From: Gemmobacter aquaticus
Lineage (GTDB): Bacteria; Pseudomonadota; Alphaproteobacteria; Rhodobacterales; Rhodobacteraceae
Assembly (NCBI RefSeq): GCF_007859075.1
Contig: NZ_VOAK01000020.1
Span: forward strand, 186,001 to 250,000
Length of the DNA stretch: 64,000 bases
Reading direction: 5' to 3'
Below are positions 14,311-16,647 of this stretch, piece after piece; within the stretch, counting starts at the first letter, position 1; each line of letters begins with the position of its first letter. The notes beneath the pieces were generated by a model. That model searched no databases, was not told the origin of the DNA, and saw only the letters and a list, made by a program, of their open reading frames with translations. The translations under genes and the position numbers were made by a program.

Positions 14311-15216
14311 ATGCCGCTGACCCCGGACCAGATCGCCGAAATCGAAGCCCTGCGCGCCACGCCGCGACCCACGCTGCGCGCCGTGTCGGAAGGGATGGAG
14401 GCGCACCTTTACAAGGCGCATGAGGTGCTGGACCACGGCTTCGTCCGCGTCATCGACTATATGGGCAACGACGCCGCAATCGTGCAGGCGGCACGGGTCA
14501 GCTATGGCGCCGGCACGAAAAAGGTCAACGATGACAGCGGCCTGATCCGCTATTTGATGCGGCACTGGCATTCGACCCCGTTCGAGATGTGCGAGCTGAA
14601 GCTGCACGTCAAACTGCCGATCTTCGTCGCGCGCCAGTGGATCCGCCACCGCACCGCCAATGTGAACGAATACAGCGCCCGCTATTCGATCATGGACCGC
14701 GAATTCTATATCCCCGAGCCGCAGCACCTTGCGGCGCAATCGACCGTCAACAACCAGGGCCGTGGCGCCGTGCTTGAGGGGGCCGAGGCCGCGCGCGTGC
14801 TGGAGATCCTGAAATCCGACGCCGCCCGCAGCTATGACCATTACGAGGCGATGCTCAGCCAGGACGGCCAGCAGGGTCTGGCGCGCGAGCTGGCCCGCAT
14901 GAACCTGCCTGCCAATATCTATACGCAATGGTACTGGAAGGTTGACCTGCACAACCTGTTCCACTTCCTGCGCCTGCGCGCCGACGCCCATGCCCAATAC
15001 GAAATCCGCATCTATGCCGAGGCGATTGCCAAGGTCGTGGCCGACTGGGTTCCCGTGGCCTATGGCGCCTTCGAGGACTATCGCATGGGCGGCACCACCC
15101 TTTCCGCCAAAGCCATGGCCGTTCTGAAACGCCGCCTCGCCGGAGAGACCGTGACGCAGGAAGAAAGCGGCATGAGCAAAGGGGAATGGCGGGAGTTCAC
15201 GGAGGTTTGGGGGTGA
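14311..15216 (+). CDS. thyX: FAD-dependent thymidylate synthase ThyX
   Basis: A 301-residue flavoenzyme that methylates dUMP to dTMP using methylene-THF. The ThyX signature begins with RHRT at residues 112-115 and continues [11 protein letters not shown]. Other conserved parts are [28 protein letters not shown], the substrate Ser/Arg region [13 protein letters not shown], and the helix [18 protein letters not shown]. The ATG at 14311 is selected with AAAGG upstream. Its TGA overlaps a GTG start for the AT-rich gene that follows (GTGA). Confidence 0.96.
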
Positions 15217-16106
15217 ACATACTCGTCACAAAGCGCTTGAAGGACGAGAGGTGGCGTATCGGGGGAGCCGTCCCTGCTATGGGAGACAGGAAACTTCGCG
15301 TCCATCACCTGAGTTATGACGATGTTCTGGACGCTCATTTTGCGATTGCTGACTTCTTTTATCGAGACGAGTATGGGATGGCAGGAGTCGGTTATCGAAA
15401 TTTGGACCTATTTATCTCAACGGTTGAACGTCAATTTGTAGAGTTTGGTGGAGTTCAGCTTTCTCGTAATGAGTTTGAAGATATCGCAACCCTGCTCTAC
15501 GGTATAATAAAAAACCATCCTTTCTATGATGCGAACAAACGGACAGCTTTTCTTTGCGCGCTTCTGCAACTGCACAGACTTGGGCGCCGGATAACCGTAA
15601 GTGAGAAGGAATTTGAGAATTTGATGGTGGAGATAGCAGATGACTCAATTCTTCGTAAGTCAGCGCTGAAGGACCTGCAAAAGGATAATGTTCCAAGGCC
15701 AGAAATTACATACCTTGCTCGGTATCTGCAGAAGAACTCTCGCAAGAACGCGAGACTGGAGCGAACTGTAAAGTTTAGGGAGCTTCGTGAGATTGTGGAG
15801 AAGAACGGATTTAAGTTCACAACCCCCTATCGTGGAACAATAGACATTGTGAAAGTTGAGGAGAGGCGTATCCCGAGATTTTTTTGGGGTGACAGAATTG
15901 AAAGAACAAACAAGGTTATAGCGAGCATCGCATATCATGGTGAGGGCGTGGATGTGCCGGACAATACCGTGAGTCTAATTCGGCAGGGGTGTGGACTTAC
16001 GGATCAGGATGGGTTCGATGGTGAAGTCCTCCTTCGTGATGCGACGCCAACTTTTCAAATGATAAAAAGCTACAGGACGGCATTGCAGAACTTGGCTTAT
16101 CGGTAG
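15213..16106 (+). CDS. Doc/Fic-type toxin with a HicA-like C-terminal domain (AT-rich, acquired)
   Basis: A 297-residue protein not typical of its surroundings: one sampled 60-base stretch (15481-15540) has 23 G/C and another (15781-15840) has 27, against well over 60% around it. The first 190 residues carry the Doc catalytic loop [13 protein letters not shown], with His, Asp, Asn, Lys and Arg all in place, after VGYRNLDLF. Fic/Doc enzymes transfer AMP or phosphate to targets such as EF-Tu. Residues about 195-297 look like a HicA/dsRBD fold: [16 protein letters not shown], then [20 protein letters not shown]. The canonical HicA Gly-Ser-His is not seen. Start GTG 15213 has GGAGG seven bases upstream and overlaps thyX; ATG 15279 is the alternative. 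No antitoxin gene is adjacent. Confidence 0.72.
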
Positions 16107-16183: not shown

Positions 16184-16215
16184 GTTGCCCGCTGTGTTGG
16201 TCTTCGGCGGGCAAC
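16184..16215 (+). terminator. Hairpin downstream of the Doc-like gene
   Basis: GTTGCCCGC at 16184-16192 pairs perfectly with GCGGGCAAC at 16207-16215 around a 14-base loop. There is no T-tract. It lies 78 bp after the toxin stop and just before the next ribosome-binding site, so it may end the inserted transcript or shield the next gene's leader. Confidence 0.45.
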
Positions 16216-16245: not shown

Positions 16246-16647
16246 ATGCCCCTCGTCACGCTTTATCTTTCGACCTTCATCACCTTCCTCGCCCTTGATG
16301 CGGTGATGCTGCGCTATGTGATGCAGCCCTTGTTTGCGCGTCACATCGGCCCGCTGCTCGCCGATCCGATCCGGCTTGGACCGGCGGCGGTGTTCTATGC
16401 GGCCTATATCGCGGGGCTGATCTGGCTGGTGTCGCTGCCCGCGCTCAGAACCGGCAGCGGGGTCTGGTTGCAGGCGGCGGTACTGGGCTTCATGGCCTAT
16501 GGAACCTATGAATTCACCAGCTACGCCGTGATGCGCGACTGGCATTGGTCGATGGTGGCAACCGATGTGGTCTGGGGCACCATCCTGACCGCGTTCTCCG
16601 CTGCGGTCGGGGTGTGGGTCACCCGTGCCCTTGGCCTTGCCGCTTGA
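16246..16647 (+). CDS. Small inner-membrane protein, DUF2177 family
   Basis: A 133-residue protein of unknown function with four predicted membrane helices: LVTLYLSTFITFLALDAVML, the FYAAYIAGLIWLVSL stretch, AAVLGFMAYGTYEFTSYAV, and VVWGTILTAFSAAVGVWV. The conserved DUF2177 pattern is visible as LDAVMLRYVMQPLF and TYEFTSYAVMRDW followed by DVVWGT. The start at 16246 has AAAGGAG six bases upstream; a longer in-frame start would absorb non-conserved sequence from the preceding hairpin. No operon partner gives a functional hint. Confidence 0.82.
   Translation: MPLVTLYLSTFITFLALDAVMLRYVMQPLFARHIGPLLADPIRLGPAAVFYAAYIAGLIWLVSLPALRTGSGVWLQAAVLGFMAYGTYEFTSYAVMRDWHWSMVATDVVWGTILTAFSAAVGVWVTRALGLAA

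What the first reader, a model, noticed from the sequence alone, without database searches (positions are those of the whole stretch)
15213..16106. AT-rich Doc-type toxin fused to a HicA-like domain, inserted at the 3' end of thyX
The gene is clearly of foreign composition, carries an intact Doc catalytic loop (HPFYDANKR), and has a C-terminal 100 residues that read like a HicA/dsRBD fold. Joining two toxin-type domains in one chain, with no antitoxin gene beside it, is unusual. The start codon overlaps the thyX stop (GTGA), so expression would be coupled to thymidylate synthesis.
Basis: partly seen in the sequence, partly recalled or inferred. Interest (0 to 1): 0.72.

Follow-up and report, generated by a model that had tools for sequence, protein, structure and literature searches.

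The report
Doc–pseudoHicA gene at thyX hotspot
A foreign toxin-like gene, built from a Doc enzyme joined to a HicA-shaped domain that has lost its cutting motif, sits directly behind the thymidylate synthase gene thyX, at a site where related bacteria carry other (often defence-type) genes and where the end of the essential gene has been rewritten without changing its protein sequence.

Summary
The ORF is real: 297 aa, 15213-16106 +, GTG start overlapping the thyX TGA, GC 46% between flanks near 63%. Residues 30-177 are a Doc/Fic domain with an intact HPFYDANKR loop. Residues 182-274 have the HicA fold and a significant profile match to HicA, but the catalytic GSH motif is absent from all 36 relatives aligned (1 of 36 has a lone histidine at that column). 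So it is one enzyme plus a pseudo-HicA domain, not two toxins. No conserved antitoxin was found. The gene is not vertical: 0 of 8 congeners carry it behind thyX; one has the site empty, another a different AT-rich gene between the same neighbours. Relatives sit behind thyX, ribonucleotide reductase, parE, ettA, uvrB and alaS. Beyond the finding: thyX, parE and nrdJb 3' ends are hotspots for AT-rich inserts (5 of 10 thyX-site cargos tested are defence or TA type), and the host gene's last ~10 codons are synonymously depleted of C where an insert is present (Spearman 0.77, 0.70, 0.60). The window's thyX tail is the most C-poor of 1,367 gene ends examined in its genome. Best reading: a one-gene translation-arrest defence effector at a recoded hotspot. 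Function is inferred.

The parts
14311..15216 (+). thyX, FAD-dependent thymidylate synthase, intact (host gene)
   Evidence: NCBIfam TIGR02170 E 1e-60; ends like its homologues
15178..15213 (+). recoded thyX tail (last 12 codons): 3 C and 19 G in 36 nt, encoding [12 protein letters not shown] as in three congeners
   Evidence: fewest C of 1,367 gene ends examined in this genome, mean 11.4; 7 congeners without an AT-rich insert keep ordinary C use
15201..15205 (+). GGAGG, Shine-Dalgarno-like, 7 nt before the GTG start, inside thyX codons
   Evidence: direct reading; L141-L143 read CGAGG there, but L145, which has no insert, also reads GGAGG
15213..16106 (+). Doc-pseudoHicA gene, 297 aa, GTG start overlapping thyX TGA
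15300..15743 (+). Doc/Fic domain, residues 30-177
   Evidence: 3dd7 (P1 Doc) Z 13.5, rmsd 2.1, 121 residues
15516..15542 (+). catalytic loop HPFYDANKR, residues 102-110
   Evidence: H102, F104, N108, K109, R110 invariant in 36 sequences
15756..16034 (+). HicA-fold domain without the GSH motif, residues 182-274 (residues 267-276 modelled with pLDDT under 50)
16047..16103 (+). C-terminal helices, residues 279-297, ending in conserved L-x-x-L-A-x-R
   Evidence: L291 and L294 invariant, A295 in at least 90% of 36
16184..16215 (+). stem-loop GTTGCCCGC / GCGGGCAAC, candidate terminator, now behind the insert
   Evidence: direct reading; not scored by a tool
16246..16647 (+). DUF2177 membrane protein, right neighbour also at the empty site
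   Evidence: Pfam PF09945 E 9e-33; same neighbour, 107 nt behind thyX, in congener G590 (L143) without insert

Best explanation
The gene is a horizontally acquired one-gene cargo parked at a 3'-end hotspot behind an essential gene. It most likely works as a self-contained abortive-infection effector. Shown: Doc domain with all loop residues; HicA-fold domain lacking the GSH motif; no conserved partner gene; patchy distribution; relatives and unrelated AT-rich cargo at the same kind of site; C-poor, synonymously recoded host-gene tail. Inferred: (1) it is transcribed with thyX and translated from an SD inside the thyX tail; (2) the Doc domain, which has the Doc-type K in NKR, phosphorylates EF-Tu and stops translation as P1 Doc does (recalled); (3) with no antitoxin gene, the pseudo-HicA domain and/or the conserved C-terminal helix hold the enzyme off until a trigger, probably phage infection, frees it. 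The HicA-like domain would then be an RNA- or protein-binding sensor. The cause of the tail recoding is open: either the insertion process leaves a rewritten tail, or selection makes one (C-poor sense means C-rich, G-poor antisense RNA, that is, a possible Rho-loading site against antisense transcription leaving the AT-rich insert).
For: Doc domain and loop. HicA fold without GSH. No partner: (within 900 nt no downstream gene shared across clades, only host synteny), and in 16 of 36 members the stop of a housekeeping gene lies within 50 nt of the start, leaving little room for an upstream antitoxin. Mobile: AT-richer than its flank in all 39 loci listed; the parE-site pair nests with two thyX-site members (82/92, not a fully supported fork) inside a well supported clade (99/99), and L062 at thyX falls elsewhere; in one genus the site is empty (G590), holds this gene (window) or other cargo (G474) between thyX and DUF2177. 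Defence context: of 10 other thyX-site insert loci tested, 5 carry TA- or defence-type cargo: HicAB, an Mrr-type nuclease, PDC-S14 (E 3e-108), ThsB-like TIR (E 2e-85), PDC-M63A/B. Tail: Spearman of downstream GC with C in the last 36 nt is 0.77 (thyX, n=39), 0.70 (parE, n=31), 0.60 (nrdJb, n=30), and not significant for the gene body. Cargo in the opposite orientation at parE has the same tail in L222, L226, L229, L232, L247.
Against: No activity, toxicity or defence is shown. PADLOC gives only partial Fic-loop matches. Of 10 thyX-site loci tested, 5 have no defence assignment: DUF4062 in one, nothing firm in four. One member, L064, has an HTH_3 protein 32 nt upstream that could be an antitoxin. 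The standard Fic inhibitory motif is not evident in the C-terminal helix (by eye). Recoding is not universal: L038, L249 and L238 have AT-richer DNA behind ordinary tails, L043 and L047 carry the gene without C-depletion, and L176, L177 and L195 have C-poor tails before GC-rich DNA. In the window's genome 4 other gene ends facing GC 0.48-0.52 are not C-poor, which speaks against a general insulator. Z 6-7 for HicA is middling taken alone (note).
Confidence: 0.55

Rival explanations
1. A bifunctional toxin: Doc kinase plus active HicA RNase in one chain.
For: HicA fold and profile match. One of 36 members (L059) has a histidine at the aligned column, and one of the 11 HicA reference sequences itself lacks it (GSR, L259).
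Against: No GSH motif in any of 36; the aligned residue is T, S, Y, F, R, K or L in 35.
Confidence: 0.07
2. An orphan addiction remnant: a Doc toxin that lost its antitoxin and persists as a selfish or decaying gene.
For: No antitoxin; patchy distribution. Some relatives are broken or cut (L065, L067, L068).
Against: 33 full-length members of the genome contigs set keep the loop and the C-terminus to its last residues across several phyla; both domains are conserved.
Confidence: 0.2
3. A regulator tied to dNTP supply: placement behind thyX and ribonucleotide reductase genes couples its expression to nucleotide synthesis.
For: 12 of 36 members lie behind thyX (7) or ribonucleotide reductase genes (nrdJ 4, nrdB 1).
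Against: Others sit behind parE, ettA, uvrB, alaS and an M3 peptidase; unrelated cargo uses the same sites, at parE also in reverse orientation.
Confidence: 0.1
4. The recoded host tail is only a ribosome-binding region tuned for the downstream gene.
For: In the window it holds GGAGG 7 nt before the GTG start.
Against: Five of six parE loci with reverse-oriented cargo (all but L238) and one thyX locus (L193/L212) have the C-poor tail; close same-strand gene pairs in the host show none (0 of 65 at rank 0.05 or less).
Confidence: 0.08

Closest known systems
Doc of phage P1 (Phd-Doc), NCBIfam DOC_P1 / Fic-Doc superfamily
   Same: Fold (Z 13.5), H-x-F-x-D-A-N-K-R loop, size of catalytic core
   Different: 30-residue N-terminal and 120-residue C-terminal extensions, no Phd, placed behind housekeeping genes
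HicA toxins (PF07927)
   Same: dsRBD-like fold and profile similarity
   Different: No GSH motif, below Pfam detection, fused to Doc, no HicB. Gerdes 2024 (PMC10865869, passages seen) lists 14 HicA classes; its main text has no whole-word 'Doc' or 'Fic'
Fused TA-type defence proteins such as CapRel-SJ46
   Same: Toxin domain with a built-in C-terminal domain and no separate antitoxin (description read in passages of PMC10865869)
   Different: Different enzyme and sensor; no phage trigger known here
Defence hotspots of P. aeruginosa and E. coli (PMC10250203, PMC10121019; search listings and abstract starts only)
   Same: Variable defence cargo at fixed chromosomal sites
   Different: Here about 1 kb, mostly one gene, hard against a host stop codon, with a recoded host tail and no recombinase gene seen in the inserts examined

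Membership tests
Doc (death-on-curing) toxins | HxFx(D/N)(A/G)NKR catalytic loop | tested here: met
   [14 protein letters not shown] invariant in 36; motif definition recalled
Doc (death-on-curing) toxins | Family score and fold | tested here: met
   54.4 bits over cut-off 38.65; Z 13.5 to P1 Doc
Doc (death-on-curing) toxins | Cognate Phd-type antitoxin beside it | tested here: not met
   No conserved neighbour; sole PF02604 match in the genome is on another contig
Doc (death-on-curing) toxins | Phosphorylation of EF-Tu | not testable with these tools
   recalled activity of P1 Doc only
HicA toxins | HicA fold | tested here: met
   1whz Z 7.3, 6g26 Z 6.1; profile match E 1.7e-5 against shuffles
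HicA toxins | Catalytic histidine in the GSH motif | tested here: not met
   T209 in the window; no GSH in 36 members, one lone H at the column (L059); 10 of 11 HicA references have it
HicA toxins | Pfam PF07927 score over cut-off | tested here: not met
   No match (own genome)
PADLOC PDC-S23 / PDC-S05 defence candidates | Match along most of the model | tested here: not met
   E 2e-9, but only positions 201-264 of 312, the Fic loop region
Self-inhibited Fic proteins | Inhibitory helix motif (S/T)xxxE(G/N) | tested here: inconclusive

The most novel reading that the evidence does not exclude
An undescribed kind of insertion delivers single, often defence-type genes in either orientation to the exact 3' ends of essential genes (thyX, parE, nrdJ and others) in at least two bacterial classes and leaves or requires a synonymously rewritten, C-poor host-gene tail. 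This would be a natural 'insert plus recoded rescue' architecture, with the Doc-pseudoHicA family as one of its travellers.
Probability: 0.35. Interest if true: 0.9.

Novelty: new variant of a known kind. Interest (0 to 1): 0.68.

Why it matters
The family is a one-gene Doc without an antitoxin and with a dead RNase fold in its place, so it can test whether Doc enzymes can be held and triggered from within. The hotspots give an easy place to look for unknown defence genes: read what lies between the stop codon of thyX, parE or nrdJ and the next host gene. The C-poor tail is a measurable mark of such inserts in three genes and two bacterial classes; explaining it would reveal either an unknown insertion mechanism or an unrecognised need of hosts to shield essential genes from neighbouring foreign DNA.

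Tried and rejected
Vertical inheritance next to thyX: rejected. Site-specific recombination with a displaced host tail: no remnant of the thyX, parE, nrdJ or ettA tail found downstream by a translated motif scan of the loci held, and no direct repeat over 10 nt between the flanks in 17 loci (the thyX scan used [11 protein letters not shown] with up to 4 mismatches, so a shorter remnant could be missed). RBS explanation of the tail: rejected because reverse-orientation cargo shows it. General effect of AT-rich neighbours: not seen in 1,359 genes of the window's genome (Spearman 0.04, p 0.11), but only 5 ends face GC under 0.52, thyX among them, and the 29 ends at 0.52-0.56 are slightly C-poorer (10.4 against 11.3-11.6). 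Viral carrier: a viral-contig scan found no relative, with one pattern only. Phage and plasmid tblastn gave partial matches only: 3 phage and 22 plasmid records, none covering 80%. A first HicA set contained wrong frames and was replaced. Convergent right-hand neighbours: mixed, C3 rank at most 0.10 in 4 of 11. Csp test: one informative locus. Phylogenetic pairs are few: 5 supported pairs at thyX (mean 4.7 the same way, 0.0 opposite) and 4 at parE (3.2 and 0.1), not significant alone. Literature: no account of the Doc-HicA fusion, the thyX/parE/nrdJ hotspots or the recoded tail was seen in the listings (no result); most subscription journals are not held, so this is weak.

Rows dropped: of 79 loci I used 33 in the alignment. 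L057 is a near-duplicate of L055; L065, L067 and L068 are broken or cut; L069-L110 match the Doc part only. In one search, 34 of 44 thyX loci were read and 32 classed, and this set was not random: 7 were chosen for carrying the gene and 8 are congeners. In the family sample alone (29 loci with the highest-scoring thyX of 120 genomes), 25 could be read: 15 AT-rich, 9 GC-rich, 1 between. The 20 regions were chosen partly because they were AT-rich; 18 were readable, 10 insert loci were tested against Pfam and/or PADLOC, L203 was not. Cargo orientation is by longest ORF.

Full report
OBSERVATION. The ORF exists as described: 15213-16106 on +, 297 codons, GTG start sharing two bases with the thyX TGA. 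GC falls to 0.46 between flanks of 0.62-0.64. The early start is right: relatives at 63, 63 and 55% identity begin within one residue of it. It is the only PF02661 (Fic) match in its genome.

THE PROTEIN. Pfam Fic (E 3e-10) and NCBIfam DOC_P1 (54.4 bits, cut-off 38.65) cover the N-terminal half. An AlphaFold2 model on 36 sequences has mean pLDDT 87, with 267-276 under 50. Residues 30-177 superpose on P1 Doc (Z 13.5, rmsd 2.1, 121 residues); residues 182-274 on 1whz (Z 7.3) and 185-262 on the B. pseudomallei HicA of 6g26 (Z 6.1, all 60 residues). Those Z values alone are middling, so I compared profiles: the C-terminal domain of 35 members against 11 HicA sequences taken from PF07927 hits gives score 31.0, E 1.7e-5; 60 column-shuffled versions reach at most 16.8 and the Doc half gives 11.7. 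In that alignment the histidine of the HicA GSH motif, present in 10 of the 11 references, falls on T209. No member of the 36 has GSH; the column holds Y 10, F 8, T 7, R 5, S 2, K 2, L 1 and H 1 (L059). The fold is therefore HicA, and the nuclease motif is gone. The C-terminus ends in a conserved L-x-x-L-A-x-R helix; several Fic structures with C-terminal inhibitory helices (class III, recalled) align with the model through residues 293-297, which hints that this helix may lie where those proteins keep their inhibitory helix. I had no coordinates to check this.

DISTRIBUTION. In 295 genomes drawn from the family, five carry a match over most of the length: own, G228, G066, G252 and, at 35% identity, G073. 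A scan of one genome per species kept 79 loci; 33 were used as full-length members, from Pseudomonadota, Acidobacteriota, Myxococcota, Fibrobacterota, Lentisphaerota, Thermodesulfobacteriota and a WOR-3 MAG. In all 39 loci listed the gene or matched part is AT-richer than its flank.

WHERE THEY SIT. ORFs were picked by my own heuristic. In 16 of 36 members the stop codon of a same-strand housekeeping gene lies within 50 nt of the start; six more have an identified gene at 70-109 nt (L006, L045, L047, L048, L053, L062), and L064 has an HTH_3 protein at 32 nt, which could be an antitoxin. The rest have only doubtful ORFs or none. Host genes: thyX (7), ribonucleotide reductase (nrdJ 4, nrdB 1), parE (2), ettA (2), uvrB, alaS, an M3 peptidase, an aldehyde dehydrogenase, DUF3124 and a PEP-mutase. 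One example of each was checked against NCBIfam or Pfam; further thyX, parE and nrdJb copies match these by blastp; L006 ettA is by eye. The nrdJb match of L039 is a C-terminal fragment, below the model's cut-off. L042, L046 and L047 end within 5 nt of the stop of a convergent gene. No partner gene is shared between clades. The tree puts the parE-site pair beside two thyX-site members (82/92) inside a clade of eight (99/99), and the thyX-site gene of Rhodobacter maris (L062) outside that clade: the gene has changed site, and thyX has been hit more than once.

SAME SITE, DIFFERENT STATES. Of 11 genomes of the genus, 9, own included, have the thyX match; none of the 8 congeners has the gene behind thyX. 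G590 keeps thyX, DUF2177, the Spx/ArsC-like gene and csp in the same order with 107 nt between thyX and DUF2177. G474 has a different AT-rich ORF (166 aa) between thyX and DUF2177.

THE HOTSPOT. I then read thyX 3' ends across the family. In the family sample 15 of 25 readable loci have AT-rich DNA (GC under 0.54) right behind thyX, 9 GC-rich DNA. In 10 of 18 longer regions, chosen partly for AT-richness, the block is 0.87-1.46 kb with a clear boundary; the seven thyX-site Doc-pseudoHicA inserts measure 0.90-1.02 kb. Cargo of 10 other insert loci was tested: HicAB (L201), an Mrr-type nuclease (L202), the PDC-M63A/B pair (L212), PDC-S14 (L213), a ThsB-like TIR protein (L214) and DUF4062 (L217); L200, L208, L210 and L219 gave nothing firm. 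parE behaves alike: 15 of 30 loci are AT-rich behind the gene, 12 GC-rich.

THE RECODED TAIL. In loci with an AT-rich insert the last codons of the host gene have lost C while G is kept or rises. At codons that could carry C, the share is 0.08 against 0.54 (codons -1 to -4) and 0.14 against 0.65 (-5 to -8) for thyX; 0.02 against 0.44 and 0.18 against 0.67 for parE; 20 of 99 against 50 of 81 over ten codons for nrdJb in the family of Pseudoxanthomonas (11 and 9 loci). Downstream GC correlates with C in the last 36 nt: rho 0.77 (p 7e-9, n=39), 0.70 (p 1e-5, n=31), 0.60 (p 5e-4, n=30), and not significantly with C in the gene body. The window's thyX tail (3 C in 36 nt) is the lowest of 1,367 gene ends in about 1.8 Mb of its own genome, mean 11.4, s.d. 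2.6. Close same-strand pairs in the same genome show nothing of the kind (0 of 65 at rank 0.05 or less). Cargo in the opposite orientation has the same tail in five of six parE loci and one thyX locus, so a ribosome-binding explanation fails. Exceptions: L038, L249 and L238 (AT-richer DNA behind, ordinary tail), L043 and L047 (the gene itself, no depletion), L176, L177 and L195 (C-poor tail, GC-rich DNA). Independent phylogenetic pairs agree but are too few to be significant alone. In the window's genome four other gene ends facing DNA of GC 0.48-0.52 are not C-poor, which favours a link to this kind of insertion over a general response to AT-rich neighbours, on small numbers.

INTERPRETATION. 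A solitary Doc with a built-in pseudo-HicA domain, moving as single-gene cargo among hotspots that also hold TIR, HicAB, restriction and other candidate defence genes, is best read as an abortive-infection effector. EF-Tu as target rests on the recalled activity of P1 Doc and the NKR lysine. Internal inhibition is inferred from the absence of an antitoxin and from the conserved C-terminus. The tail is an unexplained, measured regularity; I offer two mechanisms and cannot choose between them.

LITERATURE. Passages of PMC10865869 and PMC2701414 were read: those shown report no Doc-HicA fusion, and the former has no whole-word 'Doc' or 'Fic' in its main text. Other papers were seen as listings with abstract starts only. 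Doc biochemistry and the Rho-site rule are recalled (the abstract start of PMC6797219, also states that Rho anchors to cytidine-rich sites).

Noticed in passing
L040:5356-6105: In Pseudoxanthomonas sacheonensis a second, diverged Doc protein (DOC_P1 E 8e-13, ending LMRRLADL) follows directly behind the nrdJb-site member: two paralogues in tandem.
   Followed up: partly
L148 / L218 (G474), behind thyX: A congener carries an unrelated AT-rich 166-aa ORF with a hydrophobic start at the same site, with a recoded thyX tail.
   Followed up: partly
L144 (G587) thyX: thyX of one congener has a 7-residue longer C-terminus (ends AESGAAKP), as if its 3' end had been remade.
   Followed up: no
L061:5917-7982: In Paracoccus sediminis a family member lies between tuf and a gene that reads like rpsJ (by eye), convergent with tuf, the gene of the presumed Doc target EF-Tu; the tuf tail is not recoded (rank 0.64).
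   Followed up: partly
L037:6882-7139: At the right edge of the Limimaricola insert a convergent csp gene overlaps the Doc gene stop by 4 nt and has no C at 6 of 6 usable codons among its last eight.
   Followed up: partly
L201 / L259 HicA: The HicA of the hicAB cargo at one thyX site reads GSGSRK where others have GSH: another HicA without the histidine.
   Followed up: no
PQ189380.1, PQ189365.1, PQ189374.1 (Vibrio cyclitrophicus 'phage' records of 8-10 kb): Small records encode a 29%-identical Doc protein matching residues 65-214, reaching into the HicA-like part.
   Followed up: no
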